Source: Micromonospora globispora
GTDB lineage: Bacteria; Actinomycetota; Actinomycetes; Mycobacteriales; Micromonosporaceae
Assembly (NCBI RefSeq): GCF_003857015.1
Contig: NZ_QGGF01000387.1
Span: forward strand, 1 to 64,000
Reading direction: 5' to 3'
DNA: 64,000 bases
Shown here: positions 42,536 to 57,575 of the stretch, in pieces
How the letters are laid out: every line of letters starts with the position of its first letter
Numbering within the stretch: position 1 is the stretch's first letter
Program-made: the position numbers and the translations under genes
Notes under the pieces: model-generated
Seen by the model: the letters and a program-made list of their open reading frames with translations, nothing else
The model's database searches: none
What the model was told of the DNA's origin: nothing

Positions 42536-43674
42536 CAGCGCACCCCCGCCGCAGCCAGGTCTCCGAGCTGCTGCTCCTCGGACAGCTGCAGCGCGACGTC
42601 GATGATCATGTCCTCCTGGCCGCCGACGTAGCCGAGTTCGCCGACGCGCTGCAGGATTGCGTGCGCCGGCACGCCGTACCGCTCGGCCGCTCGCTCAGCG
42701 TGCAGCAGGAACGACGAGTAGACGCCTGCGTAGCCCTGGGTGATCGAGGCCCGGTCCATCCAGGGCAGCCGGGGAATGAAGGGACGCACGACCTCCTCGG
42801 CAGCTGACAGCACCTCCCCGAGGTCGACACCCGTGCGGATGCCCATGCGTTCGAAGGTCGCGGCGAGCACCTCCGTGGGCGAGTTGCCCGCACCGGCGCC
42901 GAGGGCGCACAGGGCACCGTCGATCTGCCTGGCGCCTGCCTGATAGGCCAGGACCGAGTTGGCGATCCCCATGCTCAAGTTCTGGTGACCGTGGAAGCCC
43001 ACCTGGGCGCCGTCGCGGCTGACCTCGTCGATCACCGCCTGAATCCGCTCCTGGGCATCCGAGAGCACCAGCGCGCCGGCGGAGTCGACGACGTACACGC
43101 ACTCGGCTCCGGCATCGACCATGATCCGGGCGTTTTGGGCGAGCACCTGGGGCGACGCCCGGTGCGCCAACATCAGGAAGCCGACCGTCTCCATCCCGAG
43201 ATCGCGAGCCTCCGAGAAGTGCTGGATGGATACGTCAGCCTCGGTGCAGTGCGTGGCGATCCGCGCAACCGACGCACCCGCCGCGTGCGCCCGCTTGAGA
43301 TGCTTCACTGTGGCCAGCCCGGGCAGCATGAGTACGGCGATCTTCGCCCGGGTGGCCTCGTCCACAGCGGCGGCGATCAGGTCGAACTCATCCACCAGGC
43401 TGAACCCGTAGTTGAAGCTGGAGCCTCCGAGTCCGTCACCGTGGCTCACCTCGATCACCTGGACGCCGGCGCGGTCCAGCGCGGAGACCACGCCGCGTAC
43501 CTGCTCCTCGGTGAACTGGTGACTCATTGCGTGCGAACCATCACGCAGCGTGGAGTCGGTGATGCGCAGATCCGTCGGTCCGCCCGCGGTGGTCGCGTGC
43601 GCGAGCACCTCGCTCTCGGTGACGTCGCGGCCGACGACCGGCGCATCCTCCGGTCGGATACTCATGTCGCCCAT
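42535..43674 (-). CDS. dmpG: 4-hydroxy-2-oxovalerate aldolase
   Basis: A 379-residue HMGL-type aldolase. RITDSTLRDGSHAMSHQF supplies the catalytic Arg and metal Asp, and VGFHGHQNLSMGIANS the metal His residues; the C-terminal communication domain follows. It splits 4-hydroxy-2-oxovalerate into pyruvate and acetaldehyde and channels the latter to the dehydrogenase encoded immediately upstream. Family members are usually about 340 residues; the extra ~30 are at the N-terminus. ATG 43674 is used; ATG 43665 is also possible. Confidence 0.92.
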   Translation of the reverse strand: MGDMSIRPEDAPVVGRDVTESEVLAHATTAGGPTDLRITDSTLRDGSHAMSHQFTEEQVRGVVSALDRAGVQVIEVSHGDGLGGSSFNYGFSLVDEFDLIAAAVDEATRAKIAVLMLPGLATVKHLKRAHAAGASVARIATHCTEADVSIQHFSEARDLGMETVGFLMLAHRASPQVLAQNARIMVDAGAECVYVVDSAGALVLSDAQERIQAVIDEVSRDGAQVGFHGHQNLSMGIANSVLAYQAGARQIDGALCALGAGAGNSPTEVLAATFERMGIRTGVDLGEVLSAAEEVVRPFIPRLPWMDRASITQGYAGVYSSFLLHAERAAERYGVPAHAILQRVGELGYVGGQEDMIIDVALQLSEEQQLGDLAAAGVR

Positions 43675-43678
43675 GCGC

Positions 43679-44674
43679 TCAGACCCCTGCTCTCTCGGGT
43701 GCGGATGCGTCGGCGGGTTGCTCACCGAGCTCCGAGGTGGACTTCCACGACGTCGCGATGCCGAGCCGGTGGGCGACCAGGAGGTCACCGACGCGGGCCG
43801 CCGCCGCGGTGATGATGTCGAGGTTTCCGGCGTAGTCGGGAAGGTAGTCGCCGCCGCCTTTGACCTCGATGGGGATGAAGACTCGCGCCTGTCCGCGCCA
43901 CGTCGACCGGGCGGGGTCGAACTGGGGGTCGGACCGCAGGTGATAGCCGGATACGTATTCCTGGACGGTGCGCACCATCGCGTGGATCGACTCGAGGATC
44001 CGGTCCTGGAGCGCCCCCGGCTCGCCCGCCTCCTCGGGGATCGCACAGAAGACCGAGTTGCGCATCATCAGCGGCGGCTCGACAGGGTTGAGGATGATGA
44101 TCGCCTTGCCCTGCTCCGCGCCCCCGATCACCTCCACCGCGGCGGCCGTGGTCTCGGTGAACTCGTCGATGTTGGCCCGGGTCCCCGGACCGGCCGAGCG
44201 GCTCGAGACCGAGGCCACGATCTCGGCATACGGCACCGGGACGACGGAGGACACCGCGTGCACCATCGGCACGGTCGCCTGGCCCCCGCAGGTGATCATG
44301 TTGACGTTCGGCGCGTCCAGGTTGAAGGACAGGTTCACCGGCGGACACAGGTAGGGACCGACGGCTGCCGGAGTGAGGTCGACGGCCAGGATGCCTGCCT
44401 CTGCGTACCGTGGCGCGTTGGCCTGGTGGGCCCTCGCCGAGGTGGCCTCGAAGACGATGTCGGGGAGCTCTTCCTGGGACAGCAGCCAGTCGACCCCCTC
44501 GGCGCTGGCCTCCAGCCCGAGCCGCTTGGCCCGCGCGAGCCCGTCGGAGGTGGGGTCGACCCCGACCATGAAGCGGGGTTCGATGATCGTGCTGCGGCGC
44601 ATCAGCTTGAACATCAGATCCGTACCGATGTTTCCCGGTCCGACGATCGCCGCCGTCGCCTTGGTCTTGCTCAT
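43679..44674 (-). CDS. dmpF: Acetaldehyde dehydrogenase (acylating)
   Basis: A 331-residue CoA-acylating dehydrogenase. [18 protein letters not shown] is the NAD-binding motif; the catalytic Cys lies in [17 protein letters not shown]. It forms the channeling complex with the aldolase encoded 4 bases downstream and converts acetaldehyde to acetyl-CoA, finishing the meta pathway. Length is slightly above the usual ~310 due to a short C-terminal tail. Confidence 0.93.
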
Positions 44675-45474
44675 CGGGTGTCCTCTCGGCTGCTGGCGAA
44701 GCGGGCGGTGACCGAGCCCAGGCCGGCGAAGGTGGCAGTGAACGTGTCGCCCGGGTCGACCGGAACCATGGCGCACACCGAACCCGGCAGCACCACGTGA
44801 CCCGCCTCGAGCGTGACGCCGCGGGCGCCGACGGTGTTGGCCAGCCAGACCAGGGATGTCAACGGGGAGCCGAGCACCGCGCCGCCTGCGCCGGTGCCGA
44901 CCACGGCGCCGTTGCGCGTCATGACGGCGCCCGCGAGGCGCAGGTCCACCTCGGTGAGCGGCGTCGGGGTGGACCCGAGCACCAGCGCCCCGGAGCTCGC
45001 GTTGTCGGCGATGGTGTCCGCCAGACCGATCTTCCAGTCCGCGATCCGGCTGTCGACGATCTCGAGGGCAGGCAGCACGAAGTCCACGGCGGCGATTGCT
45101 TCCTGGACGGTCACACCCGGTCCGCGGAGCGGATGCTTGAGGACGAAGGCCACCTCCGGCTCGATGCGGGGCTGCAGGAACCGGTCGAGCGGAATGGGCG
45201 CGTGCTCGAGGAAGAAGAAGTCGTCCAGGAGATGGCCGTAGTCCGGCTCGTGCACCCCCAGCATCCGCTGCATCGCGGCGCTGGTCAGGCCGACCTTGTG
45301 GCCCTTGACAGTCCGTCCCGAAGCGAGCCATTCCTCGACCTGGAGGAGCTGGATCGCATACGCGTCCTCGACCCCGAGGTCGTCATGCGTGCCGGTCAGC
45401 GGCGCGATCGGCTTCCCGGTCGCGTAGGCCTCGATCAACGATCGGGCAGCCGCTGACCTCAACTGCTGGTCCAT
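44671..45474 (-). CDS. dmpE: 2-hydroxypenta-2,4-dienoate (2-oxopent-4-enoate) hydratase
   Basis: A 267-residue hydratase/decarboxylase family protein with [31 protein letters not shown] (metal Glu pair), [25 protein letters not shown] and [12 protein letters not shown]. Grouping with the aldolase and acetaldehyde dehydrogenase supports the hydratase role, in contrast to the homologue at 41753-42535 beside the tautomerase. ATG 45474 is preferred to an adjacent TTG. It overlaps the dehydrogenase start by 4 bases. Confidence 0.82.
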
Positions 45475-45496
45475 CAATGGTCTTCTCGCTTCCTGG

Positions 45497-46465
45497 TCAC
45501 AGCTCGAGTTCGAGCCGCGTGCATGTCGGGCGCGAAACGCAGATGAGCATCCGGTCCATGGTTGCTTTCTCCTTCTTGGTCAGCACGAGGTCGCGATGAT
45601 CGACGGTGCCTGAGTGGACCGGGGTGATGCACGACCCGCAGATGCCGTCACGGCAGTCGTTGTCGACCTCGACACCCAGTGCGAGCACGACCTCGAGGAT
45701 GTTCGCCTCCGGCGCCAGCCGGAGCGTGTGCCCGGACTTGGTGAGGACCAGCTCGTAGTTGTCGGCGTCGAGCGCCGCGGGCTCGGTCGACTCGACCCCG
45801 GCACGGCTGAACAGCTCGAACCGGACGATGTCCTGGTCGACGCCCTGGATCTTTTCGGCTGCGCCCTGGACAGCCCGGAGTAGCCCCAGGGGTCCGCATA
45901 CGTAGACCAGGCCACCCTCGGGGAGCTCCTTGACGAGCTGCTCGAGGTCCGGCCGGCCGTCGGCGTCCTCGGCGAGGAAGGTGACCCGGTCACCGAGACC
46001 TGCCAGACGTGAGCGGAACGCCATGGAACCGGACGTTCGGCCACCGTAGGTCAGGTGGAAGGGGTGACCGTCGCGGTGCAGCCGCTCGGCCATCGCCATG
46101 ATCGGGGTGATCCCGACCCCGCCGGCGACCAGTGCGTGGTAGGGCGCTTCCTCGAGGACGAAGTTGTTCTTCGGCCGGGTCACCAGCAACCGGTCGCCCA
46201 CGCGCAACTCGTCGTGCACGAAGCTTGACCCGCCCCGGCTCTCCGGCTCGCGAAGCACCGCGATCTGCCAGGAGGACAGGTCGTCCGGGTCGCCGCACAG
46301 GGAGTACTGCCGGGTGCTGCCGTCCGGGACGTAGACGTCGATGTGGGCGCCCGGCTCCCACTCGGGCAGCGGGTCGTCGCTCTCGATCCGCGTCAGCCGG
46401 ACCGACACCACTCCCTCGGCCTCCCAGGTCATCTGGGCGACCCGGAGCTCGCGCTGCTCAACCAT
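45497..46465 (-). CDS. Phthalate-dioxygenase-reductase-type Rieske oxygenase reductase
   Basis: A 322-residue reductase of the class IA (PDR/VanB) type: FMN-binding RQYSLCGDP, NAD-binding GGVGITPIMAMA with VYVCGP, then a C-terminal plant-type [2Fe-2S] domain with Cys271, Cys276, Cys279 and Cys309. It passes electrons from NADH to the Rieske oxygenase encoded two genes upstream, so oxygenase and reductase make a two-component system without separate ferredoxin. It overlaps the HAD gene by 8 bases. Confidence 0.9.
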   Translation of the reverse strand: MVEQRELRVAQMTWEAEGVVSVRLTRIESDDPLPEWEPGAHIDVYVPDGSTRQYSLCGDPDDLSSWQIAVLREPESRGGSSFVHDELRVGDRLLVTRPKNNFVLEEAPYHALVAGGVGITPIMAMAERLHRDGHPFHLTYGGRTSGSMAFRSRLAGLGDRVTFLAEDADGRPDLEQLVKELPEGGLVYVCGPLGLLRAVQGAAEKIQGVDQDIVRFELFSRAGVESTEPAALDADNYELVLTKSGHTLRLAPEANILEVVLALGVEVDNDCRDGICGSCITPVHSGTVDHRDLVLTKKEKATMDRMLICVSRPTCTRLELEL

Positions 46466-47129
46466 CTCTGCCCTCCTCCATTACCGGCAGACCCAGGAGC
46501 TTGCGGACCTCGGCGTACGAAGCATCGGGATTGGCGACGTCGAACCACACTGACGGGATGCCCAGCGCTTCGGCCCCCCGGATGTTGGTGGCCTGGTCGT
46601 CGAGGAAGACCATGTCGGCGAAGGCGACCCCGAGTCGCTGGGAGAGCAGCTCGTAGAGCCGCGGTGCGGGCTTGAGGTGCCCCTCGATCGACCCGTCGAC
46701 GACCACGTCCACGTCACCGACAATCTCGATCTTCTCGATCCAGTCCTCGGAGTGGAACGCCCGCAGGTCGTTGGTGAGGATCCCGACCGGGATGCCTGTG
46801 GCCCGGGCATCGCGGACCAGGGCCCGCGCCTGCTCCCGCACGAGCGCAGGCCGAGCAGGCTCATACAGATGGGCGATCATCGCGCGTATGTCCGGCTCGT
46901 GCCCGCCCGACTCGTGCCACTGCGCCGCGCGCGCGGCCCAGTAGGCGCGCTCGGTGATCCGCCCCGCCTGTAGGTCCTCCCAGGCCGGGTCCGGCTGCTC
47001 CGCCGCGGCCAGCGGGCCACGTTGATTGAGCAGCGCGTACGCCGGCGTCCCCGATTCGGCGGCGGCCAGCTCGAAGGGAGTCAGCAGCACCGGACCACCG
47101 AAGTCCAGCACGAGAGCGGGGCTCGTCAT
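46458..47129 (-). CDS. HAD-superfamily hydrolase
   Basis: A 223-residue HAD protein. Motif I is VLDFGGPVLL, where the first Asp is the nucleophile but the usual second Asp is replaced (DFGG), as in dehalogenase- and epoxide-hydrolase-type members; motif II is GILTNDL, motif III has HLKPAPRLY, and motif IV VFLDDQATN. The helical cap (~residues 20-100) is present. It is embedded between the zinc-ribbon and reductase genes of the aromatic operon. It could remove phosphate from an aryl phosphate or act as a housekeeping phosphatase; the missing second Asp makes phosphatase activity less certain. Confidence 0.75.
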   Translation of the reverse strand: MTSPALVLDFGGPVLLTPFELAAAESGTPAYALLNQRGPLAAAEQPDPAWEDLQAGRITERAYWAARAAQWHESGGHEPDIRAMIAHLYEPARPALVREQARALVRDARATGIPVGILTNDLRAFHSEDWIEKIEIVGDVDVVVDGSIEGHLKPAPRLYELLSQRLGVAFADMVFLDDQATNIRGAEALGIPSVWFDVANPDASYAEVRKLLGLPVMEEGRDG

Positions 47130-47425
47130 CAGTGCTCCGGCTCCTCAATGACGGCGCGGTCGAAGAGCACCACGTTGCCGGTCCACCGGCACTCGGCACA
47201 CCAGGTGAGGAAGACCCGGTCCTTCCCGCTCCACCACTCCGAGGTCAGGCCGCGCTCCAGCGACGCGGAGCAGCGCGGACAGAATTTCGGCCTGTCCAGG
47301 AGGTGGTGGGCGGCGTCGGAGGCGAACCAGTCGCCCGGTGGCGGCAGGCGATGCGGGTCGGGAGGCAGCGCGGGCATCGGCCCGTGATGGGCCCCGCGCC
47401 GTGCTTCCTCATCGAGGTCACGCAC
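47129..47425 (-). CDS. Zinc-ribbon miniprotein in the Rieske operon
   Basis: A 98-residue protein with a short Pro-rich N-terminus and a four-cysteine zinc-ribbon: Cys49-PR-Cys52 and Cys76-AE-Cys79, separated by 23 residues containing EWWSG. No enzyme domain is present. GTG 47425 overlaps the 3' end of the Rieske oxygenase gene by 8 bases, and the TGA overlaps the HAD ATG, so it is translated within the operon. I know no named family; an accessory or regulatory subunit of the oxygenase or kinase is possible. Confidence 0.6.
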   Translation of the reverse strand: MRDLDEEARRGAHHGPMPALPPDPHRLPPPGDWFASDAAHHLLDRPKFCPRCSASLERGLTSEWWSGKDRVFLTWCAECRWTGNVVLFDRAVIEEPEH

Positions 47426-48674
47426 CGGACCCGACCTTCTCGCGTGCGGCTGCCGCGTCACGATGAAGTGCGAGCAGCTGTTCACGGATCGGGCTGTAGC
47501 GCATCGAACCGCCGTTGATCCACTGGTCGGTGAATGCGGTCCCGGCGCCGAACTTGTCCTTCTCGCACGGCAGCTCGATGATCTCGTGCTTCTCGCGCAC
47601 CACACCGGGCGGGTCCTCGCCGTCCTCGACCGCGGCCATCGCTTCCTTGAACATCTTGCGCAGCATCGCCACCCCCTGGTCGGAGCGTCCGAGATGCTCC
47701 TGTGAGCGGTCGGTGATGGCGCCCTGGGAGACCCAGGCCATGACGTCCTGGCCCTCGACGTAGTCGGTGATGAACTCGCCGTTCTCGTCGCGGAACGGGT
47801 ATTCGTAGACCACGGGGCGTTCCTGCTTCTCCCACACACCACCCTCGGGGTGGTGGACGGAGTAGAACAGCTTCCAGGTCGTGGTGTCGTCGATGGGCAC
47901 CCGGATCTGCATCTGGTCGATCCACATCCCGCCGACCCGCATGCCGTAGGGGAACATCAGCGGGTGGCCGATGGCCCAGTCGTCGTTCTCCTCGGTGTGT
48001 CCCTCAAGGACGCGGCGCTTGATGATGCCGTACTCGAACTCGTCGAACGCCACTTTGATGTGCTTCTTCTGGAACGATTTCGGGGCATCGAAGCCCTGGG
48101 TCTGGCCGAGGAACTCAAAGTAGTAGCCGTGCAGCCACTCGACGTGGTGCGGGTCGACGGAGTTCTCCATGATCTGGAGCCAGTTGCACGGCAGTGTCGC
48201 CACGCCCACGTCGCGGATCCCGTCGAGGACGTAGACATCGAACCGCGGCAACTCGGGCACCGGCGCCGGACCGACGTACACCCAGACCATGCCGCCCATC
48301 GTCTGCGCGACGCCGGCCTTGGCCTTGATCTTGTCCCGGAACGTGGTGTTGTCGTTCTCCGCGGGCTGCTCCACGCACTGCCCACTGAAGTCGTACTTCC
48401 AGCCGTGGTAGCCGCAGCGGATGCCGTCCTCGTGCACCACGCCGTAGGTCAGCGACGCACGCCGGTGCGGACAGGCCTCGCCGATGATCCCGTACCTGCC
48501 GGACGGGGTCTTGTAGAGCGTCCAGTTCTCGCCCAGCAGCCGCACCGTCTTACTGGGCTTGGTGTCGAAGTCCTGCTCGAACGCGATCGGGTACCAATAG
48601 CGGCGCAGCAGCTCGCCCATCCGGGTGCCGGGACCGACCCGGGTCAGCTCTTCGTTCTGCTCGACAGTCAGCAT
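47418..48674 (-). CDS. Rieske non-haem iron oxygenase, alpha subunit
   Basis: A 418-residue Rieske oxygenase of the phthalate 4,5-dioxygenase/vanillate demethylase type (alpha-only). The Rieske centre is Cys68-Pro-His70 and Cys87-Gly-Tyr-His90; the mononuclear iron site is E170-N-x-x-D174-x-x-H177-x4-H182 in the catalytic domain. Partner reductase is at 45497. In this operon it lies between a phenylphosphate-synthase-like kinase pair and extradiol dioxygenases, so it probably makes the catechol that these cleave. Whether its substrate is the phenol itself, an aryl phosphate, or a methoxyphenol is not visible. Confidence 0.9.
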   Translation of the reverse strand: MLTVEQNEELTRVGPGTRMGELLRRYWYPIAFEQDFDTKPSKTVRLLGENWTLYKTPSGRYGIIGEACPHRRASLTYGVVHEDGIRCGYHGWKYDFSGQCVEQPAENDNTTFRDKIKAKAGVAQTMGGMVWVYVGPAPVPELPRFDVYVLDGIRDVGVATLPCNWLQIMENSVDPHHVEWLHGYYFEFLGQTQGFDAPKSFQKKHIKVAFDEFEYGIIKRRVLEGHTEENDDWAIGHPLMFPYGMRVGGMWIDQMQIRVPIDDTTTWKLFYSVHHPEGGVWEKQERPVVYEYPFRDENGEFITDYVEGQDVMAWVSQGAITDRSQEHLGRSDQGVAMLRKMFKEAMAAVEDGEDPPGVVREKHEIIELPCEKDKFGAGTAFTDQWINGGSMRYSPIREQLLALHRDAAAAREKVGSGA

Positions 48675-48742: not shown

Positions 48743-50554
48743 TCACTCCAGGACCGTGACCTTCCCGGTGTTGCCGTCGACCCGGATCAGCTGTCCGGTC
48801 CTGATGTTCTTGGTCCCGAACGCGGTGCCGGTCACGGCGGGCAAGCCGTACTCGCGGCAGACGATGGCTGCGTGGCTCATCATGCCGCCCACGTCGGTCA
48901 CGGTCGCCTTGATCTTCCCGAAGATCGGTGCCCAAGACGGTGCCGTCAAGGGGGCCACTAAGATCTCGCCGTCCTCGATCTCGCTGATCTGGTCGGCGGA
49001 GAAGATCACCCGGGCCGGACCCTCGACGAGGCCCGGGGATGCGGCGAAGCCGCTGAGCTCCCCGTCGGCACCACCCTCGCCCGAGCTGAGCCAGGCCGAG
49101 ACAGAGTCCGACGTGATGCCCCAGAGCATGACCGTGAAGGGCTCAGTGACCACCTCCGGCGGGATGCCGAGCGCAGGCGGCGCCGACCACTGCTTGAGCG
49201 CCTCGTGGATGCCGCGGCGGCGTTCGATCTCCGCCGGCCAGTAACCCGGCCCACGCGACGGCGCTCCGACGGCCCAGCCCGCGTAAAGGTCCCACAGCAC
49301 GTCGGACACCTCAGCGCGCTTCAACATGAAGACGTCGTCGGTGTTCACGATGAAATCGGCCGCCTTGAGCACCTTGCCGACGTCGCGCATCTTGCGCCAC
49401 AGCACGGAGTGTGCCCAGTGCTCGACGTAGAAGTTGTGGTTCTCGACGTACGGAAAGACGGTGCGCGACAGACCGAGCTTGGCGTCGAACGCCTCCCGGT
49501 CCTCATCGGAGTCGAGCAGTTCGCGGTATTCGGCGACGACCCTGTCGCGCTCGGCGTGCAGGGCCTGGATCGGGCGGTCGAGGTCCACGCCGTCCCTGAC
49601 CTTGGTGATGTAGTCGGCGATGTAGCCGACCGGAACCTCGACGTTCTCGATCCAGATCTTGTCGGAGTGGTAGAAGCCCGAGCCGGTCGAGAAGTTGAAC
49701 CACGGCTCGGCGGCCTTCTCCCACTCGGCGATCCAGGCGCGGCCCGCCTCGTCGGACTTCAGCTTCTCCCAGGTCGTCGCCACGTCGCCCGCGTCGAAGC
49801 GGTCGTCGATGCCCGAGCTCACCGCCAGCCGCGCGAGCTTCTTGAGCTCGTCGTCGGGCCGGAACAGGTCGACATCGACACCGGCGACCATCTTGGCGAT
49901 GGCCAGGTCGGGGATCGAGGGGAAGGCCGTCTTGCAGAAACCGAAAAAGTCCAGGTACGCGGCGTAGCCGAGGTTGAGGAACTCGAAGTGGTACTGCCAC
50001 AGGGTGAGGGCGAGGTCGAGGAGGCGGTGGTACGACGCGAGCAGCTCGTTGCCCGATCCCTTGCCGACACCGGACGTGATGACCTCGAGGTCCTCGAACT
50101 GCGGCAATGGCTCCAGGCGGAGCTCACTCATCTCCTTGACAAGGTCACGGATCTTGACCAACCAGTCGTCGTACAGCCGGTTCCAGTTGCCGAAGTAGAA
50201 GCCCGCCCGCTCCATGAACAGCGGCACGCGGCTCTCGATGTCCTCGGGCGGCGCCGGTACCGGGCTGAGGTACACGTAGCCGTTGAGGATGCGGAAGTCG
50301 ACGCCGTACGCCGGCGGGATGATGTAGTGCCGCGTGTTGTACTGCGACAGGGAAGCGAGCGCGAACTCCAGGAACGTGGTGTCCCAGGGAGTCAGTGCCT
50401 CGGGCCAGTGCACGCCGTCGTGGAACCAGAAGGCGCCCTCCTCGTATTCGCGTCGTTCCTCGCAGAAGAGCGACGAGTAGGTGTAGAGCTCCTGCCAGCC
50501 CTCCGCCCCCTCGGGCGTCTGGATCTCGAACGGGCTGGGGAAACGATCGGCCAT
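48743..50554 (-). CDS. Phenylphosphate-synthase-like protein 1 (PEP-synthase mobile domain)
   Basis: A 603-residue protein (about 68 kDa). The C-terminal ~100 residues are a PEP-utilising phosphohistidine domain with His561 in TDVGGMMSHAAIVCREYGLPAV; the preceding ~480 residues have no ATP-grasp and no PEP/pyruvate TIM barrel. This size and layout match protein 1 (70 kDa) of Thauera phenylphosphate synthase, which carries the phosphohistidine and transfers phosphate to phenol. Its ATP-binding partner is the next gene. The substrate is inferred to be a phenolic compound from the operon. Confidence 0.8.
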   Translation of the reverse strand: MADRFPSPFEIQTPEGAEGWQELYTYSSLFCEERREYEEGAFWFHDGVHWPEALTPWDTTFLEFALASLSQYNTRHYIIPPAYGVDFRILNGYVYLSPVPAPPEDIESRVPLFMERAGFYFGNWNRLYDDWLVKIRDLVKEMSELRLEPLPQFEDLEVITSGVGKGSGNELLASYHRLLDLALTLWQYHFEFLNLGYAAYLDFFGFCKTAFPSIPDLAIAKMVAGVDVDLFRPDDELKKLARLAVSSGIDDRFDAGDVATTWEKLKSDEAGRAWIAEWEKAAEPWFNFSTGSGFYHSDKIWIENVEVPVGYIADYITKVRDGVDLDRPIQALHAERDRVVAEYRELLDSDEDREAFDAKLGLSRTVFPYVENHNFYVEHWAHSVLWRKMRDVGKVLKAADFIVNTDDVFMLKRAEVSDVLWDLYAGWAVGAPSRGPGYWPAEIERRRGIHEALKQWSAPPALGIPPEVVTEPFTVMLWGITSDSVSAWLSSGEGGADGELSGFAASPGLVEGPARVIFSADQISEIEDGEILVAPLTAPSWAPIFGKIKATVTDVGGMMSHAAIVCREYGLPAVTGTAFGTKNIRTGQLIRVDGNTGKVTVLE

Positions 50555-50642
50555 GGTGGCCTCCTCAGGTCAGGCAAAGCGGGTGGTGGAATGGTGAATC
50601 TCTGCCGCCGGTACCTGTGGCGGGCGGGGTCCCGATCTCGAG

Positions 50643-51746
50643 TCAGGCCGGCAGTTTCCGCCTTCTCGCGTACAAGGGATTGACCAAGGTGTCGACGATG
50701 GACGCCGTGGCATCGGTCTTCGCTCCGACGCGGTGGCGCTTCTTGCTCCACACCGTCTCGGGACGGGCCTGCAGCAGTACCGCGTCCTCGCCCGCAGGGA
50801 GGTCGTCGTCCACGGCCCATTCGATGTCCTGGGGACAGCCGTAGTGCTTCTCGGCAGCTCGGGCGAGCTTGGCGATGGCGACGATTTCATCGTCCGTGAG
50901 CGACGGCACGTTGACCTGGTCGTCCGGCAGCTGCACCCGGCTGACCCGCGGACAGTGGGAGCCCTCAACCTCGGTCAGGAGGTGCGCGTGCGTCTTGGGG
51001 CTGATGATGCGGCGGTTGATCGACCACATCACCTTGTCGACCAGGAAGTTGTCGGGGGTGACGTCACCCGAGACGACACCTTCACCGAAGCCCCAGGCCG
51101 CGTCGATGCAGATGCCGGAACGGTCACCGTTGGTCGGGTCCAGGGTGAAGGCGACCCCCGCAGCCCGTGGACGGATCATCTTCTGCACGGCGACGGCCAT
51201 GTCCACCCGGTCGTGGTCGTAGCCCATCTCGTTGCGGTAGGTGATCGCCCGTTCGGTGAACAGGCTCGCCCAGCACCCACGGACCTTCTCGAGCACGTCG
51301 TCGATGCCGCACACCCACAGGTAGGTGTCGTGCTCACCGGCGAACGAGGCGTCCGGCGAGTCCTCCACCGTTGCCGAGGACCGTACGGCGACCGGCACGT
51401 CCTCGGTGCCGCATAGGGCGCAGAGGTCGGCGTACATCTGCCGGAGGCGGTTCTCGTGCTCCTCGGACAGCCTCCAGCTGCGCACCATCTCGCGGGCCCG
51501 GCTCGCCGCACTCACCAGGGCGGTCTGGTCGTCGGTGTCGACGTTGGTGATCAGGTCCTTGATCCGGGGCATCAGGCCCGAGCCCTGCTTGGCGTCGGCG
51601 AAGACGTCGATGGTGACCGCGAAACCCGGCGGGACCGGGAGGCCGGCCTGGCTCATCGTGCCGAGCGAGGCGCACTTGCCGCCCACGAGTGGGTGCTGCT
51701 CGGTCACGAGGCATTCGAAGGGGATGGCGGTGAGACGGTCGGGCAT
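50643..51746 (-). CDS. Phenylphosphate-synthase-like protein 2 (PPDK/PEP-synthase ATP-grasp)
   Basis: A 367-residue protein (about 40 kDa) equivalent to the N-terminal half of PEP synthase. LVGGKCASLGTM and PVPPGFAVT open it, VRSSATVEDSPDASFAGE (121-138) is the ATP-binding block, and PRAAGVAFTLDPTNGD with VLLQARPETVW completes the ATP-grasp region. It lacks the swivelling phosphohistidine domain, which is in the preceding protein. In phenylphosphate synthase the two proteins together convert ATP and phenol to phenylphosphate, AMP and phosphate; the C. glutamicum 4-cresol (cre) and the bacterial acetovanillone pathways use similar pairs. ATG 51746. Confidence 0.82.
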   Translation of the reverse strand: MPDRLTAIPFECLVTEQHPLVGGKCASLGTMSQAGLPVPPGFAVTIDVFADAKQGSGLMPRIKDLITNVDTDDQTALVSAASRAREMVRSWRLSEEHENRLRQMYADLCALCGTEDVPVAVRSSATVEDSPDASFAGEHDTYLWVCGIDDVLEKVRGCWASLFTERAITYRNEMGYDHDRVDMAVAVQKMIRPRAAGVAFTLDPTNGDRSGICIDAAWGFGEGVVSGDVTPDNFLVDKVMWSINRRIISPKTHAHLLTEVEGSHCPRVSRVQLPDDQVNVPSLTDDEIVAIAKLARAAEKHYGCPQDIEWAVDDDLPAGEDAVLLQARPETVWSKKRHRVGAKTDATASIVDTLVNPLYARRRKLPA

Positions 51747-51751
51747 GGACG

Positions 51752-52801
51752 TCACTCCTGGAAACGGGGGTCGGAGTTGGGAGGCAGGGCATCGAGGTCG
51801 GGGATGACGACCTCCTGGACACGGTTCCGGTAGAGGACGAGGGCGGTGGTACCGCCGGCCACGAGCCGCACGCGGACGAACTCGGTGTTGAACGGCTCGC
51901 CGGGGTCGTAGCCCATCGCCAGAGTGGCGAAGGCGCGGATCGGGCCCGAGTGCGTGGCGACGACGACAGTCCGGGCGGAGGTCTGGGCGTGGACGGTGAG
52001 GATGCCGCGCCAGAACCGGCGTACGCACGACACCGGTGGCTCGAAGTACATCATCGGCATCGTGAGCCAGTGGGTGATCGGGTCACCGCCGCCCTGCTGG
52101 ATGCCCCAGAAGCGGTCGATGTCGACAAGCCACCCGGGCCGCTCGCCGAGTCCGACCCGCTCGTACTTCTCCATCTCCCGGTGGTAGATCCGGAAGGCGC
52201 TGGTGACGTCGCGGGGACCCTCCGGCGTCGCGACCTCGAAGTTGCGGAAGTTCTGGTCGTCGCGGAGTTGCCCGATGCTGGGGTTGCCCCGGCCGTACAG
52301 TTCGATGTTATCGAGCAGGCCGCGGCGCAGATGCTCGCCGGTCTGGCGCGCGCGGTTCGTCGGCGCACACAGCAGCTCGACCGTCATGCCGTCGGTGACC
52401 CGCCGGGCGAACTCCTGGCCGCGCCGGTGTGCCTGCCAGGAGCCCAACGGCGTGAGGCCCGACTCCGAGGAGTAGCCCTGGGTCTCTCCGTGCCGGACCA
52501 GGTAGATGTCGCAGTCGATCGTGGCGAGCTGGTCACGCCGCTCCGGCACGATCTCCTTGGTGCGGGTCACCTCGGCCCAGGCGCGCGACGAGCCGACCAC
52601 GTTGCCGTCATACATGACCGGGTCGCTGCGATGGTCCCGACCGCGGAACTGGCGCAGGTAGAGCGGGATGGATTCGTCCTGCTCGTCCGGCACCGCCGCT
52701 GGCACCGAGCGTCGCGCCCGGTGGCGGGTCAGGTACGCCGGCGCGTCGGGGCGCTCGGTGCGTGGCAGCGCCGACGAACTGCTCTGGTCCTCGATGGTCA
52801 T
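51752..52801 (-). CDS. Histidine phosphatase family protein
   Basis: A 349-residue member of the histidine (acid) phosphatase superfamily, branch 1. The phosphate-binding RHGE (Arg103, His104) lies in YLVRHGETQGYSS after a 90-residue N-terminal extension, and the second catalytic His is in VVATHSGPIRAF. Located 5 bases upstream of the kinase ATP-grasp gene, it is a candidate to hydrolyse an aryl phosphate, by analogy with the phosphohydrolase of the C. glutamicum cre cluster. It could alternatively remove over-phosphorylated substrate. The activity on aryl phosphates is inference. Confidence 0.8.
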   Translation of the reverse strand: MTIEDQSSSSALPRTERPDAPAYLTRHRARRSVPAAVPDEQDESIPLYLRQFRGRDHRSDPVMYDGNVVGSSRAWAEVTRTKEIVPERRDQLATIDCDIYLVRHGETQGYSSESGLTPLGSWQAHRRGQEFARRVTDGMTVELLCAPTNRARQTGEHLRRGLLDNIELYGRGNPSIGQLRDDQNFRNFEVATPEGPRDVTSAFRIYHREMEKYERVGLGERPGWLVDIDRFWGIQQGGGDPITHWLTMPMMYFEPPVSCVRRFWRGILTVHAQTSARTVVVATHSGPIRAFATLAMGYDPGEPFNTEFVRVRLVAGGTTALVLYRNRVQEVVIPDLDALPPNSDPRFQE

Positions 52802-52812
52802 CTCCAGGCCTC

Positions 52813-53724
52813 TCAGCTGTGCACCGTGAGGAACTGCTGGTTGACGACGCCGTCGTAGTAGAACATCGCCCTGCCCATCTCAGCCTCGGTCCAGGTGATC
52901 GGCTCGGCCCCGGGGTCGACCCAGTAGCCGCCGGTGAACATCTCGTTGCGGTTGCCCACCGGATCGAAGAAGTAGAGGCACTGGCCGCGGGTGGCGCCGT
53001 GTCGCGTGGGGTTGGTCTCGACGTGGACACCGTGGTAGACGCACACGTCGGCGGCACCCCGCAGGTCGTTCCAGCCGTCGACCCAGTAGGCGAAGTGGTG
53101 CAACCCGTGGTTCGGGCCGGTGATGAACGCGATGTCGTGCGAGCGGTGGGACACCTCGAGCCAGCTCGCGATCTGGAACCCGTCGTCCCCGAGGACCTGC
53201 TCGGTGAGCCGGAAGTCGAGGTGCTCGCTGAGGAAGCGGGTGTTGGTGTCGACCTCCTCGGCGGTCAGGAAGATGTGGTCGACCCGCGGCGGCGCGATGC
53301 CGACCAGGCCCATCGGCCGCGGCGGCGGGTTGGTTTGCGGGAGCAGGTTGCCGACCTGCTGCATGCCGTAGACCAGCTCCATCTCGTGGCCGCTGGGCAG
53401 CGTGAAGCGGATCGATGTCCCGTGGCCGGGCGCCCACTCGTCCGCGGCGAAGCGGCGAACGGCGACGCCGGCGGCTTCGAGACGCGCCTGATAGTGGTCG
53501 AGGTCCTCGGCGTCGGTGACCTTGAACCCGAAGTGGTTCAGGCCGTGGGTGGGCTCCAGGGTCAGGATGACGCTGTGGTGCTGGTGCTCGTCCCAGCACT
53601 TCAGGAAGACCCGGGAGGAGTCCCTCCCGGTCTCGATCATGCCGATGACCTCCGAGTAGTAGGCAGTAGCCAGCTCGAGATCGGGGACACGGATCTCGAC
53701 GTGGGAAAGTCGCAGAATTGTCAT
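52813..53724 (-). CDS. Catechol 2,3-dioxygenase (extradiol), copy 2
   Basis: A 303-residue VOC-fold type I extradiol dioxygenase made of two modules. Iron ligands of the C-terminal module are His150 (RVDHIFL), His210 (LHHFAYW) and Glu261 (NRNEMFTGG). The enzyme cleaves a catechol meta to give a hydroxymuconate semialdehyde or, for 3-substituted catechols, a ketone. It starts one base into the stop of the paralogue encoded upstream and resembles it throughout (LKCWDE, ATRGQCLYFFDP), pointing to tandem duplication and specialisation. Confidence 0.9.
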   Translation of the reverse strand: MTILRLSHVEIRVPDLELATAYYSEVIGMIETGRDSSRVFLKCWDEHQHHSVILTLEPTHGLNHFGFKVTDAEDLDHYQARLEAAGVAVRRFAADEWAPGHGTSIRFTLPSGHEMELVYGMQQVGNLLPQTNPPPRPMGLVGIAPPRVDHIFLTAEEVDTNTRFLSEHLDFRLTEQVLGDDGFQIASWLEVSHRSHDIAFITGPNHGLHHFAYWVDGWNDLRGAADVCVYHGVHVETNPTRHGATRGQCLYFFDPVGNRNEMFTGGYWVDPGAEPITWTEAEMGRAMFYYDGVVNQQFLTVHS

Positions 53725-54806
53725 CAGGTGTGCACTCTCATGAAGCGGTCGTTGAGCTCGCCCTCGTAGTAGAAGACGGCGCGGCCGATGTTGTCCTCGG
53801 TCCAGGTCAGGGTCGGGAAGTCGGGATCGGGGCGATAGCCACCGGTGAAGACCTCGTTGCGCGTCCCCAGCGGGTCGAAGAAGTAGATGGTCGAGCCACG
53901 GGTGATGCCGTGCCGGGTCGGACCAACGTCAAGCTGGATGCCGTTGTAGGCGAGGATGTCCGCCGCATCGCGCACGTCGTCCCAGTCGTCGAGCCAGAAC
54001 GCAAAGTGGTGGAGGCCGCCGTTGGCGCCCTGGACGATCGCGAGGTCGTGGGGCGAGTGCGACCGCTCCAGCCAGGTGCCCAACTGGTGTCCGTTCCCGT
54101 CGAGGAGCTGCTCCGTGATCCGGAAGCCGAGCACGTCCATGTAGAACCGCGTCGACTCTCCGACCTCCTCGGCGGTGATCAGCATGTGGTCCATCCGTGG
54201 CGGCGCGATCCGGTCTCGCGCGAACTGGCCGTCGTCGCCCAACGAAGGATCGGGCTGGTGCCGGGGCCGCGACGTGCCGACCTTCTCGACGTCGGCCACG
54301 AGCTCCATGAGCTGCCCGCTCGGGGTGGAGAAGCGGATCGACTCTCCCTGGCCCACGGCCTCGCCCTTGCTGATCCGCTCGACAGGGAACCCGTACCGGG
54401 AGACCTTGTTCTCCAGGTCGGCGAGGTCGTCCTCGTGGTGGACCTTGAACGACATCAGGTGCATCCCCATCCGGGGCGCGTAGCGCAGCCGCAGCGAGTG
54501 GTGGTCCTCCTCGTCCCAGCACTTGAGGTAGACCGAGTCCTCGGTGAGCGCGCTGATCTCCATTCCCATGACGCCGGTGTAGTAGGCCGCGGCCAGGTCG
54601 AGGTCGGTGACGGTCACGTCGACGTGACCGAGGCGCAGGATGCCGCGCGGAGGGCCGGCCACCGTGCTGGGCCGCGCCTGGCGTGTGTCGGACGGGTCGA
54701 ACCTTGCTCCGTCGGGCGGGGCGTCGGGCGCGAAGATGCGCCGCGTGCCCGCCGGCGTGCCCTCGACCAGATCGCGGTGACCTGTGGCGCCGTTCACATC
54801 TTCCAT
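53724..54806 (-). CDS. Catechol 2,3-dioxygenase (extradiol), copy 1
   Basis: A 360-residue type I extradiol dioxygenase. Iron ligands are His207 (RMDHMLI), His267 (LHHFAFW) and Glu318 (TRNEVFTGG). Compared with its neighbour it has an extra N-terminal stretch of about 55 residues rich in Pro, Asp and Arg before the first VOC module starts at GILRLGHVDV. ATG 54806 was chosen; an even longer in-frame start at 54890 would overlap the divergent promoter. It is the first gene of the minus-strand meta-cleavage operon, downstream of an IclR-type palindrome. Confidence 0.88.
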   Translation of the reverse strand: MEDVNGATGHRDLVEGTPAGTRRIFAPDAPPDGARFDPSDTRQARPSTVAGPPRGILRLGHVDVTVTDLDLAAAYYTGVMGMEISALTEDSVYLKCWDEEDHHSLRLRYAPRMGMHLMSFKVHHEDDLADLENKVSRYGFPVERISKGEAVGQGESIRFSTPSGQLMELVADVEKVGTSRPRHQPDPSLGDDGQFARDRIAPPRMDHMLITAEEVGESTRFYMDVLGFRITEQLLDGNGHQLGTWLERSHSPHDLAIVQGANGGLHHFAFWLDDWDDVRDAADILAYNGIQLDVGPTRHGITRGSTIYFFDPLGTRNEVFTGGYRPDPDFPTLTWTEDNIGRAVFYYEGELNDRFMRVHT

Positions 54807-54904: not shown

Positions 54905-55564
54905 GTGAGTGATGAACCGCCCCCCGCTCGACCGGAGGCGATGCGCGACCTCGTCAGGGAGTACGTCTGCGCCCTGCACACGACGTACCTTGACCATGTC
55001 GGTCACCTGCCGCCGGCCGAGCGTGGAGCACTACCCCTGGTCGCTGCCGGCGAGGTCACCGTGGTCGCGGCGGCCGCCCAACGGCTGCACCTCGTCGCCA
55101 CCACCGAACCGCTGCCCGCGCCGCAGGGTCCGGAGGTGGAGTTCGCCGACGAACACCACGGCATCGCCTGGACGGTGCGGTTCTACGACCCGTCGGTCCT
55201 GCCCGAGCTGGGTCTCCTCGCCGAGGACGCCCCCAAGGACGTACGACGCATCCTCGGGATCACCAACACCGTCTACCACCTCACCGTTGCCGTCGGCGGC
55301 GGCCTAAGCGGGCACCACGCCCAGCACTCGGGCGTCGCCCTCGCCAACCAGCACGCCAAGACCTTCCGCGACCTCGACCGGATCCGGCGCGCGCTGCCCC
55401 GCCAGCAGCGCACCGTCGACGAGTTCGGCGTGTGCGCACGCCTCGGCCTCGACCGCGCCGCCGCCCTCCTCGCCGCCGACCTCACCTCCGGGCGGGTCGC
55501 CCCCGAGGCAGGAGCGCCAGCCGCCTCCTGCCTCGCAGCAGTCCTGGACGACGTCACCCGATGA
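54905..55564 (+). CDS. Conserved-looking protein of unknown function, divergent to meta operon
   Basis: A 219-residue soluble protein without signal peptide. Visible segments are VTVVAAAAQRLHLVATTEP, EFADEHHGIAWTVRFYDP and ILGITNTVYHLTVAVGGGLSG followed by HHAQHSGVALAN. I do not recognise the family. GTG 54905 is chosen (frame open from further upstream; ATG 54941 is an alternative with an over-close GGAGG). Its TGA overlaps the ATG of the IclR gene, so both are co-expressed. A sensor or accessory role for the aromatic operon is possible from position. Confidence 0.55.
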   Translation: MSDEPPPARPEAMRDLVREYVCALHTTYLDHVGHLPPAERGALPLVAAGEVTVVAAAAQRLHLVATTEPLPAPQGPEVEFADEHHGIAWTVRFYDPSVLPELGLLAEDAPKDVRRILGITNTVYHLTVAVGGGLSGHHAQHSGVALANQHAKTFRDLDRIRRALPRQQRTVDEFGVCARLGLDRAAALLAADLTSGRVAPEAGAPAASCLAAVLDDVTR

Positions 55565-56340
55565 GCACGGGAACCTCACCAGGCGCCGAGCGGCTCTCGA
55601 GCGTGACCGCGGCCGCGCGGATCCTCCGGGAGTTTGGCAAGCACAGCACCCAGCTCGGCGTGACCCAGCTGGCCGGCCGCGTCGGCGTGGGCAAGAGCAC
55701 CGCCCACCGGATCATCTGGACTCTCGTTGAAGAAGGTCTACTCGAGAAGGTCGAGGAGACCGGGCTCTTCCGGCTGACGACGACGATGCGCTCACTCGGG
55801 GCCAGCGCCGAGACCGCCCAGCGCCTGCACGAAGCGGCGACGATCCCGCTCGACCAGCTGCGCACCAAGACGGCCGGCACCCTGCACATCGCCATCCTCG
55901 ACGGCATCGATGTGCTGTACGTCGAGCGGAGGGAGGGGCCGGGCGCCATCCCGGTCTTCCGGGCGGTCGGCAGCCGCAACGCGGCGCACGTGACGTCCAG
56001 CGGCAAGGTGCTCCTGGCCTTCCTCCCGGCTGACCACCAGAAGCGCCTCGTGCAAAGCATGCGCCTCACGCCCAGGACTCCCCGCACGATCACCTCCAAG
56101 TCGGCGTTCCTTGCCGAACTGACCCAAGTCCGGCGCCAGGGATACGGCGAGAACCGCGGGGAGTCCCAGCCCGGCATGTGCTCGATCGCGGCGCCGATCC
56201 GCGATCCCCTCGGCCGGGTGGTCGCCTCGGTGTCCGTGGCGGAGTACGTCGAGGACGTGGAGGCCGGGCTGCGACACCTCATCCGCCCCATCGTGGAGAC
56301 CGCCATGCGCATCTCCGCAGGACTGGGATGGCACGAGTGA
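55561..56340 (+). CDS. IclR-family transcriptional regulator
   Basis: A 259-residue IclR protein: winged helix with TQLAGRVGVGKSTAHRIIWTLVEEGLLEK, then effector domain with VLYVERREG, HVTSSGKVLLAF and CSIAAPIRDPLGRVVASVSV. ATG overlaps the previous stop, and its stop overlaps the next gene's GTG. It is divergent from the meta-cleavage operon with a 17-base palindrome in between, so it probably regulates that operon in response to an aromatic compound or catechol intermediate. Confidence 0.88.
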   Translation: MSTGTSPGAERLSSVTAAARILREFGKHSTQLGVTQLAGRVGVGKSTAHRIIWTLVEEGLLEKVEETGLFRLTTTMRSLGASAETAQRLHEAATIPLDQLRTKTAGTLHIAILDGIDVLYVERREGPGAIPVFRAVGSRNAAHVTSSGKVLLAFLPADHQKRLVQSMRLTPRTPRTITSKSAFLAELTQVRRQGYGENRGESQPGMCSIAAPIRDPLGRVVASVSVAEYVEDVEAGLRHLIRPIVETAMRISAGLGWHE

Positions 56341-57575
56341 GCGGAACATGGGAACGCGTCTGTCGCGTCGAAGAGGTCGTGCCCGACCAGCCGGTCGGGA
56401 AGGTCATCGGCGACTCCGGCCAGGACCGGGACCGGGTCTGCGTGGTGGCCAGGGACGACGGGGAGTTCGTCGCACTGCTCGACCGCTGCCCGCACCGCGA
56501 CATCGCGCTCTCACGCGGGATCGTGAAGAATGGGACGCTCGTCTGTCCCGGGCACTTCTGGCGCTTCGACCTCACCACGGGAGAGCGCACCGATCTGCCC
56601 GACCACGGCGCGACGGTCTATCCCACCCGAGTCGTCGACGGCTGGGTCGAGGCGCTGCTCCCGCCGCTCAAGCCCTACCGGTCGATGCGTGCATGGCTGC
56701 TTGCCCAAGCCAGAGAAGGGAAGCCCACCATGCAGGAGACTGCTCCTACTAGCCCGGAGATCGGCGAAGCCGTCGACGTCAACGGAATCCGCACCAACTA
56801 CCACGACATCGGCTCCGGAGACCCCATCGTCCTCATCCACGGGTCCGGTCCCGGTGTCAGCGCGTGGGCCAACTGGCGACTCACGCTGCCGTCCCTGTCC
56901 GAGCGTTTCCGCGTCCTCGCCCCGGACGTGCTGGGCTTCGGCTACACCCAGCGTCCGGAAGGCGTGCGCTACGACCTCGCGACCTGGACCGACCATCTGG
57001 TCGGCTTCCTGGACGCACTCAGCCTCGAGCGGGTGTCGGTGGTGGGCAACAGCTTCGGCGGCGCGCTCGCCCTCAGCCTCGCCACGAGCTTTCCGCGGCG
57101 GGTCGACAGGCTCGTGCTCATGGGGAGCGTCGGCGTGCCGTTCGAGCTGACCCCGGAGTTGGACGCCGTCTGGGGCTTCGAGCCGTCCCTGCCCAACATG
57201 CGTGCGATCCTCGATGTCTTCGCGCATGACCGCTCACTCGTGGACGACGACCTCGCCCGGCTCCGTCTCGAGGCCGCCACCCGTCCCGGAGTACAGGAGG
57301 CCTACCGCGCCATGTTCCCGGCTCCGCGACAGGCCGCCGTCGATGCCATGACGCTCGATGAAGGGCTGATCCGCGCGATCGAGCACCCCACCCTCGTCGT
57401 GCACGGACGCGACGACCGCGTCATCCCCCTGCGCAACTCCCTGCGCTTGCATGACCTGATCAGCAAGTCTCAGCTCCACGTTTTTGGCCGGTGCGGGCAC
57501 TGGGTACAGATCGAGCACGCCCACGAGTTCAACCGACTGGTCGCCGACTTCCTCGACCCGTGTCATGGCCGGTGA
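56337..57575 (+). CDS. Rieske domain fused to meta-cleavage product hydrolase
   Basis: A 412-residue open frame. Residues 1-110 are a Rieske ferredoxin domain with Cys51-Pro-His53 and Cys70-Pro-Gly-His73 in CPGHFWRFD. After a linker (~111-131) the rest is an alpha/beta hydrolase of the DmpD/XylF/TodF type: oxyanion HGSGPGVSAWANW, nucleophile Ser239 in GNSFGG, acid Asp in HGRDDRVIPL, His388 in CGHWVQ. The hydrolase cleaves ring-fission products of substituted catechols. An internal ATG at 56730 with GAAGGGAAG upstream could yield the hydrolase alone. Start is GTG 56337 (GTGA overlap with IclR); ATG 56328 is alternative. No frameshift separates the parts. Confidence 0.8.
   Translation: MSGTWERVCRVEEVVPDQPVGKVIGDSGQDRDRVCVVARDDGEFVALLDRCPHRDIALSRGIVKNGTLVCPGHFWRFDLTTGERTDLPDHGATVYPTRVVDGWVEALLPPLKPYRSMRAWLLAQAREGKPTMQETAPTSPEIGEAVDVNGIRTNYHDIGSGDPIVLIHGSGPGVSAWANWRLTLPSLSERFRVLAPDVLGFGYTQRPEGVRYDLATWTDHLVGFLDALSLERVSVVGNSFGGALALSLATSFPRRVDRLVLMGSVGVPFELTPELDAVWGFEPSLPNMRAILDVFAHDRSLVDDDLARLRLEAATRPGVQEAYRAMFPAPRQAAVDAMTLDEGLIRAIEHPTLVVHGRDDRVIPLRNSLRLHDLISKSQLHVFGRCGHWVQIEHAHEFNRLVADFLDPCHGR

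What the first reader, a model, noticed from the sequence alone, without database searches (positions are those of the whole stretch)
48743..52801. Aryl phosphate kinase paired with a histidine phosphatase
The histidine phosphatase gene lies 5 bases before the kinase ATP-binding subunit gene, so the operon both makes and could break a phosphoester. It has a ~90-residue N-terminal extension before RHGE. A make-and-hydrolyse pair resembles the cre pathway, where oxidation occurs on the phosphorylated compound and the phosphate is later removed; alternatively it protects against accumulation.
Basis: inference. Interest (0 to 1): 0.6.

Follow-up and report, generated by a model that had tools for sequence, protein, structure and literature searches.

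The report
Phosphate-tagging pathway for breaking phenols
A gene set kept together in many actinobacteria appears to put a phosphate on a phenol, oxidise the tagged ring with a Rieske oxygenase and then free a catechol for ring opening; the histidine phosphatase noticed here is one of its most constant parts, but its substrate is unproven.

Summary
The pair is real. A branch-1 histidine phosphatase (HP, 51752-52801, minus strand) ends 5 bases before the ATP-grasp subunit (50643-51746) of a two-subunit aryl dikinase; the swivel subunit is 48743-50554. The operon is larger than the finding: two catechol 2,3-dioxygenases, HP, kinase, a phthalate-dioxygenase-like Rieske oxygenase, a zinc ribbon, a HAD protein, a reductase and a meta-cleavage route. 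In the 80 related loci kept of 153, HP directly follows a catechol dioxygenase in 78 of 78 with upstream sequence, and precedes the kinase in 69 of 79 with downstream sequence. Where the cluster is split, HP stays with the ring-cleavage genes. In a Pseudonocardia group a different kinase lineage stands near the same HP set. Of 21 relatives of this Rieske, 13 have a kinase and no GFO/IDH dehydrogenase nearby, six the reverse, one neither, one is cut. Best reading: a tag-oxygenate-untag phenol pathway in which HP frees catechol from a phosphorylated intermediate. Main rival: HP is a safety valve, as the hydrolase of aniline dioxygenase systems. The window's HP has Asn where two alignments place the usual catalytic Glu. 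Nothing was assayed. My paper searches found no description of this combination.

The parts
51752..52801 (-). histidine phosphatase (HP), branch 1, with a conserved N-terminal extension of about 92-102 residues
50643..51746 (-). aryl dikinase ATP-grasp subunit (KinN; CreI/PpsB/HpeI-like)
   Evidence: PPDK_N
48743..50554 (-). aryl dikinase swivel and substrate subunit (KinC; CreH/PpsA/HpeH-like), GGMMSHAAI
47418..48674 (-). Rieske oxygenase alpha subunit, phthalate-dioxygenase/LigXa_C type
47129..47383 (-). small zinc-ribbon-like protein that accompanies this Rieske type (start codon uncertain)
   Evidence: no Pfam hit; found after Rieske in 51 of 53 loci with room and beside kinase-free relatives
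46458..47129 (-). HAD-family hydrolase, second candidate phosphatase
45497..46465 (-). flavin/NAD reductase with C-terminal 2Fe-2S domain, presumed Rieske reductase
52813..53724 (-). catechol 2,3-dioxygenase 2 (VOC2)
   Evidence: TIGR03211 366.9 bits, cut-off 320.2
53724..54806 (-). catechol 2,3-dioxygenase 1 (VOC1; start codon uncertain)
   Evidence: TIGR03211 359.8 bits, cut-off 320.2
44671..45477 (-). 2-hydroxypentadienoate hydratase-like (FAA_hydrolase fold)
43679..44668 (-). acylating acetaldehyde dehydrogenase
42535..43680 (-). 4-hydroxy-2-oxovalerate aldolase (HMGL-like, DmpG_comm)
41753..42535 (-). probable 4-oxalocrotonate decarboxylase, a relative of the hydratase
   Evidence: no Pfam hit; the same loci regions match both this and the hydratase; name inferred
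40099..41541 (-). aldehyde dehydrogenase, probable hydroxymuconic semialdehyde dehydrogenase
   Evidence: Aldedh; specific name inferred
54905..55564 (+). conserved unknown gene, divergent from the operon (start codon uncertain)
   Evidence: no Pfam hit; hit in 68 of 80 loci
55561..56340 (+). IclR-family regulator, divergent (start codon uncertain)
   Evidence: IclR_C and HTH_IclR on 55648-56340
56328..57575 (+). Rieske ferredoxin-like domain fused to an alpha/beta hydrolase (start codon uncertain)

Best explanation
The operon is a tag-oxygenate-untag route from a simple phenol to catechol. Step 1 (inferred from homology): KinN and KinC transfer a phosphate from ATP through the swivel histidine to the phenolic OH. 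Step 2 (inferred from gene linkage): the Rieske oxygenase with its reductase oxidises the aryl phosphate, for which the phosphate plays the part of the carboxylate of phthalate-type substrates. Step 3 (inferred): HP hydrolyses the phosphorylated oxidation product, for example catechol monophosphate, to catechol. Step 4 (annotation): catechol 2,3-dioxygenases and the meta-cleavage enzymes take it to central metabolism. Shown here: gene order, domain content, conservation and co-occurrence. Not shown: any activity or substrate. Roughly: 0.65 that the Rieske enzyme uses a product of the kinase; 0.45 that HP is the main-line phosphatase after the oxidation.
For: Gene set and order conserved across actinobacterial relatives: of 80 loci kept (153 found), HP follows a catechol dioxygenase gene in 78 of 78 with upstream sequence (77 labelled VOC2, one VOC1, L111) and precedes KinN in 69 of 79. 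When the cluster is split (L088, L096, L098, L108), HP stays with the dioxygenases while KinN-KinC-Rieske-zinc ribbon form a separate unit about 10-13 kb away, as expected if HP feeds ring cleavage. Eleven of 12 genomes checked because HP lacks an adjacent kinase, or because it is divergent, still hold a KinC match at E<=1e-10. In G293 and Pseudonocardia dioxanivorans the nearby KinC is only 28-30 percent identical, yet HP (51 percent) and Rieske (60-62 percent) are kept: the set keeps a kinase while the kinase lineage changes. Of 21 relatives of the Rieske, 13 have a kinase and no GFO/IDH dehydrogenase, 6 the reverse, 1 neither, 1 cut (Fisher 3.7e-5, rows not independent). Precedent: HpeD prefers the modified phosphorylated product over the kinase product (PMC9618137, passages).
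Against: No biochemical evidence. In the window and nine other rows (10 of 54) the position that hhalign and MAFFT put under the catalytic Glu of E. coli CobC is Asn (43 Glu, 1 Asp), so this HP may be slow or use another acid. A HAD protein in the operon could be the phosphatase (after Rieske in 38 of 48 loci with room). G102 has a kinase, Rieske and HAD without HP, so HP is not needed for kinase plus Rieske in general. If dioxygenation takes the phosphate-bearing carbon, phosphate would leave by itself and no phosphatase is needed. G325 (L089, 2.8 Mb, draft MAG) shows HP without any kinase match.
Confidence: 0.45

Rival explanations
1. Safety valve. The Rieske enzyme dioxygenates the aryl phosphate at C1-C2, phosphate is lost spontaneously and catechol forms directly; HP only hydrolyses excess aryl phosphate back to phenol, as AtdA2-type hydrolases do with gamma-glutamylanilide in aniline dioxygenase systems.
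For: Close architectural parallel: ATP-dependent tagging enzyme, tag hydrolase, Rieske dioxygenase, reductase, meta cleavage. In the 1-naphthylamine system the hydrolase NpaA2 is not needed for turnover, and the introduction states that the GAT-like enzyme keeps gamma-glutamylanilide at a tolerable level (PMC11335346, passages). HP is next to the kinase in 69 of 79 loci. Kinase-type Rieske loci lack the GFO/IDH dehydrogenase of their relatives, which fits loss of the tag doing the re-aromatisation. Asn at the acid position suits a low-activity valve.
Against: In split clusters HP leaves the kinase and stays with the catechol dioxygenases. HP is kept in loci with every kinase lineage that also carry these dioxygenases, whereas G102, with kinase and Rieske but no such dioxygenase seen in its 20 kb stretch, has none.
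Confidence: 0.3
2. The HAD protein is the pathway phosphatase, like HpeD, and HP serves another phosphate ester or a regulatory role.
For: HAD gene downstream of Rieske in 38 of 48 loci with at least 1.6 kb of room; HpeD of the known Hpe pathway is a HAD enzyme (PMC9618137, passages); G102 has HAD and no HP.
Against: HAD is missing in 10 of those 48 loci while HP is in all 80 by selection of the scan and is contiguous with the dioxygenases. The HAD motif is D-x-G-G in 56 of 57 rows, without the second Asp common in HAD phosphatases (the meaning of that Asp is recalled).
Confidence: 0.15
3. The Rieske enzyme is an O-demethylase: guaiacol is phosphorylated, demethylated to catechol monophosphate and released by HP.
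For: The Rieske protein matches LigXa_C (51.3 bits, cut-off 27) and weakly VanA_C, families named after O-demethylases; DdmC is among its solved relatives.
Against: Its closest solved relatives are phthalate-type dioxygenases. No formaldehyde dehydrogenase was seen among the recurrent gene families of the 80 loci, judged by eye from the cluster list. Kinase-free relatives stand beside a GFO/IDH dehydrogenase, which speaks for dioxygenation.
Confidence: 0.15

Closest known systems
Cre pathway of 4-cresol catabolism (Corynebacterium glutamicum; cre-type loci on Rhodococcus plasmids NZ_CP021355 and NZ_CP129900)
   Same: Two-subunit aryl dikinase (KinC about 56 percent identical), oxidation presumed on the phosphorylated compound, separate phosphatase, IclR regulator.
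   Different: There a P450, SDR, ferredoxin, FAD reductase and an HD-domain protein stand beside the kinase; here a Rieske oxygenase and a histidine phosphatase. No HD-protein or P450 relative in the window. That the HD protein is CreD is recalled; Du et al. 2016 is not held.
Hpe pathway of hydroxyphenylethanones (HpeHI, HpeCBA, HpeD)
   Same: Kinase type (46-47 percent in KinC) and a phosphatase acting after modification of the ring substituent (PMC9618137, passages).
   Different: There the modification is carboxylation and the phosphatase is HAD. A Hpe-like set lies on the same contig just beyond the window (L014).
Anaerobic phenylphosphate pathway (PpsAB, phenylphosphate carboxylase)
   Same: Kinase type (50.6 percent KinC in Azoarcus KH32C).
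   Different: There phenylphosphate carboxylase genes and no HP; here oxygenases.
Aniline dioxygenase systems (AtdA/TdnQTA/NpaA)
   Same: Works alike: ATP-dependent tagging, tag hydrolase, Rieske oxygenase, reductase, catechol cleavage (PMC11335346, passages).
   Different: The tag is glutamate made by a glutamine-synthetase-like enzyme, and the hydrolase is a GAT-like protein; no shared tagging enzyme.
Phthalate dioxygenase (7fhr, 7fjl) and relatives with a GFO/IDH dehydrogenase
   Same: Rieske alpha subunit type, zinc-ribbon companion in L146, L147 and L152.
   Different: Kinase-free relatives have a GFO/IDH dehydrogenase; kinase-type ones do not.

Membership tests
Two-component aryl dikinases (CreHI, PpsAB, HpeHI) | separate ATP-grasp subunit | tested here: met
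   PPDK_N 351.9 bits, cut-off 27
Two-component aryl dikinases (CreHI, PpsAB, HpeHI) | swivel subunit with catalytic His motif | tested here: met
   GGMMSHAAI in the window; GGx(M/L)SHAAI in 69 of 76 rows; of the other 7, six have C or A before the His (L067, L143, L121 seen; L122, L140, L141 by identity or kinship to L121) and L058 is cut before the motif
Two-component aryl dikinases (CreHI, PpsAB, HpeHI) | phosphorylation of a phenol | not testable with these tools
   needs assay
Histidine phosphatase superfamily, branch 1 | family profile and fold | tested here: met
   Pfam 51.5 bits over 21.7; PhoE Z 16.3, rmsd 3.7, 183 aligned
Histidine phosphatase superfamily, branch 1 | RHG, second Arg and second His | tested here: met
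   R103, H104, R150, H284 in 54 of 54 rows
Histidine phosphatase superfamily, branch 1 | catalytic Glu/Asp as proton donor | tested here: inconclusive
   aligned position 184 is Asn in the window and in 10 of 54 rows, Glu 43, Asp 1; alignment there is gapped
Cre pathway | P450 oxygenase beside the kinase | tested here: not met
   no window hit at 1e-10 with the P450 of L006
Cre pathway | HD-type phosphatase | tested here: not met
   the L006 HD protein hits only L006 and L007 among 93 loci and the window
Hpe pathway | biotin-dependent carboxylase and HpeD-like HAD-IIA in the operon | tested here: not met
   HpeD-like query: no window hit; no carboxylase domain among the operon proteins scanned; such genes are in L014 outside the window
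Anaerobic phenylphosphate pathway | UbiD-type phenylphosphate carboxylase | tested here: not met
   no UbiD hit among the operon proteins scanned; wider genome not searched
Phthalate-dioxygenase-like Rieske oxygenases | Rieske CxH-x16-CxxH and D-x2-H-x4-H iron site | tested here: met
   64 of 64 rows
Phthalate-dioxygenase-like Rieske oxygenases | reductase with flavin/NAD and C-terminal 2Fe-2S domain | tested here: met
   NAD_binding_1 and Fer2 at 244-314 of 322
Aniline dioxygenase systems | glutamine-synthetase-like tagging enzyme and GAT-like hydrolase | tested here: not met
   none among the operon proteins scanned; it works like, but is not, such a system

The most novel reading that the evidence does not exclude
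The phosphatase replaces the dihydrodiol dehydrogenase. The Rieske enzyme would make a cis-2,3-dihydrodiol of the aryl phosphate, which is an enol phosphate; HP hydrolysis gives a hydroxyenone that loses water and becomes catechol. Re-aromatisation would then be driven by dephosphorylation and dehydration, without NAD and without a dehydrogenase. This accounts at once for the kinase, for HP beside the catechol dioxygenases, and for the near absence of the GFO/IDH dehydrogenase that accompanies kinase-free relatives of the same Rieske enzyme. Against it: an SDR lies beside the HAD gene in some split or Pseudonocardia-type clusters (L034, L088, L096, L098, L137, L148, L149), and L048 has a weak GFO/IDH-like stretch (29 percent) about 2.3 kb after its Rieske gene.
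Probability: 0.1. Interest if true: 0.8.

Novelty: new variant of a known kind. Interest (0 to 1): 0.6.

Why it matters
If right, it is an aerobic phenol route in which a Rieske oxygenase acts on an aryl phosphate, in soil Nocardioides and many MAGs named as actinobacteria, Nanopelagicales and Acidimicrobiia. It would join kinase-first pathways (Cre, Hpe, Pps) and tag-first Rieske systems (aniline) in one scheme, and suggest that three kinase pathways took up three unrelated phosphatases: HD, HAD and histidine phosphatase. It gives a direct way to test why cells spend ATP to phosphorylate phenols before degrading them, which the HpeHI authors call unclear (PMC12167813, Discussion).

Tried and rejected
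Cre membership: rejected, no P450 or HD relative in the window. Plasmid relatives of HP: none. Solved relatives of HP by sequence: none at E<=0.001 with the profile, one chance-level hit with the single sequence. The general acid: I first read N187 (invariant) as the replacement by eye; hhalign and MAFFT put position 184 there instead, so it is left open. In one search no own-genome phosphatase passed my filter; three did, and one (L174) is evidently a wrong reading frame. The Rieske basic-residue comparison gave no clear phosphate-binding signature; only H274 separates rows of HP-type clusters (61 of 61, plus L033, L137 and L148_14091) from the other eight rows, and this is unexplained. The kinase tree has very long branches (L137 among them); the split of HP-linked kinases from Cre, Pps, Hpe and other rows has 88/91 support, below the tool's star mark, so kinase clade membership is only suggestive. 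Paper searches that found no such pathway: (open-licence full texts only).

Rows dropped: in the Rieske context table only the top four of 27 plasmid records were examined; G584 is cut by its contig end and L153 has neither partner. HP statistics use the best 80 of 153 relatives, which were selected by HP, so HP presence there is by construction. Not every locus covers the whole operon.
Full report
Observation. HP (51752-52801, minus) is a branch-1 histidine phosphatase whose stop ends 5 bases before the ATG of KinN, the ATP-grasp subunit; KinC, the swivel subunit with GGMMSHAAI, follows. RHGE begins at residue 103.

Surroundings. Reading leftwards on the minus strand the set is VOC1, VOC2, HP, KinN, KinC, Rieske, zinc ribbon, HAD, reductase, hydratase, acetaldehyde dehydrogenase, aldolase, a hydratase-related protein and an aldehyde dehydrogenase. 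Both VOC proteins exceed the TIGR03211 cut-off for catechol 2,3-dioxygenase. A divergent side carries an unknown gene, an IclR regulator and a Rieske-ferredoxin/hydrolase fusion. So the expected end product before ring cleavage is a catechol.

Kinase. KinC is 56 percent identical to cre-type, 51 percent to pps-type and 46-47 percent to hpe-type proteins, which are placed in these groups by their neighbours. On a tree of 76 rows the HP-linked kinases fall apart from those references with 88/91 support, which the tool does not star, and several long branches make the base unsure. HpeHI, the studied relative, accepts many phenols, phenol itself slowly (PMC12167813, abstract, Discussion and the substrate section).

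Conservation. A scan of 84,980 species genomes found 153 relatives of HP; the best 80 were kept. HP directly follows a catechol dioxygenase gene in 78 of 78 loci with upstream sequence (77 labelled VOC2, one VOC1), and KinN directly follows HP in 69 of 79 with downstream sequence. The zinc ribbon follows Rieske in 51 of 53 with room, HAD in 38 of 48. In the window's own genus HP was found in none of 36 congeners, while window proteins are about 75-95 percent identical to those of the nearest Nocardioides loci, and an rve-type transposase gene abuts the left end (39327-40118); together this suggests horizontal gain.

Split clusters. In L088, L096, L098 and L108 the kinase-Rieske-zinc-ribbon unit stands about 10-13 kb from HP on the same contig, and HP remains with the dioxygenases. 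In G293 and Pseudonocardia dioxanivorans the nearby kinase is a divergent lineage (KinC 28-30 percent, KinN 37-40 percent), yet the Rieske (60-62 percent) and HP (51 percent) are kept. Two Pseudonocardia MAGs (G329, G331) hold such a divergent kinase too. Of the 12 genomes checked, 11 have a KinC match at E<=1e-10; the exception, G325, is a 2.8 Mb draft MAG.

Rieske partners. To avoid selection by HP, I collected relatives of the Rieske protein: 5 of 298 genomes of the order, 13 of 396 of the phylum, own genome included, and the four best of 27 plasmid records. Of these 21 distinct loci, 13 have a kinase nearby and no GFO/IDH dehydrogenase, six have a GFO/IDH dehydrogenase and no kinase (G058, G511, G563, L151, L152, L154), one has neither (L153), one is cut (G584). 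Fisher's p of 3.7e-5 ignores kinship and is only a guide. A weak GFO/IDH-like stretch is in the window 30 kb away, and one is 2.3 kb after the Rieske gene of L048. G102 has a kinase, Rieske, reductase, HAD and a 4-hydroxybenzoate-hydroxylase-like gene but no HP. HP thus goes with the catechol dioxygenases rather than with kinase and Rieske alone.

HP itself. The AlphaFold model is confident from about residue 90 on and poor in the extension; the domain matches PhoE (Z 16.3, rmsd 3.7, 183 aligned) and RosC (Z 16.1). R103, H104, R150 and H284 are invariant in 54 rows; position 184, which two alignments place under the usual catalytic Glu, is Asn in the window and nine close rows, Glu in 43 and Asp in one. 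The extension carries an invariant PLYLR motif, perhaps a docking site (inference).

Phosphatases of kinase-first pathways. HP is absent from seven cre-, hpe-, pps-type or unassigned kinase loci (L006-L010, L014, L143), and the HD and HpeD-like proteins of the cre- and hpe-type loci are not found in the 80 HP loci or the window.

Reading. Kinase, Rieske and HP form one pathway with probability about 0.65; HP as main-line phosphatase after oxidation 0.45; valve 0.3. The aniline systems are the best working analogy for the valve (PMC11335346, passages), HpeD for the main line (PMC9618137, passages). The boldest reading, dephosphorylation-driven re-aromatisation, is open at about 0.1.

Noticed in passing
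window 54905-55564 (+): Unknown gene divergent from the operon, hit in 68 of 80 related loci, no Pfam match. AlphaFold model confident (mean pLDDT 91.3); Foldseek best E 0.31 against PDB and VIA best Z 4.5. H62, H125, H137 and H141 are invariant and H150 nearly so in 31 rows, which could be a metal site.
   Followed up: partly
L014 (own contig, 64001-84000, just right of the window): A second aryl-kinase set of Hpe type: kinase pair, HAD-IIA phosphatase-like, carboxyltransferase-like, biotin carboxylase and biotin carrier genes. Two phosphate-first pathways lie side by side.
   Followed up: partly
L035 6347-6478 (own contig near position 110347-110478): A 44-residue stub matching the C-terminus of KinC (66 percent) overlapping a transposase-like reading frame.
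   Followed up: no
window 39070-40118 (+): Transposase-like genes (rve domain, 33.1 bits, cut-off 32.6) abutting the left end of the catabolic cluster.
   Followed up: no
window 47129-47383 (-): Zinc-ribbon-like protein that accompanies this Rieske type with or without a kinase; function unknown.
   Followed up: partly
L147 8444-16623: Divergent kinase pair with Rieske, reductase and HAD next to a 4-hydroxybenzoate 3-monooxygenase-like gene, without HP: perhaps another phosphate-first pathway.
   Followed up: partly
window 56328-57575 (+): Rieske-ferredoxin-like domain fused to an alpha/beta hydrolase; in several relatives the two hits lie as neighbours, in others apart.
   Followed up: no
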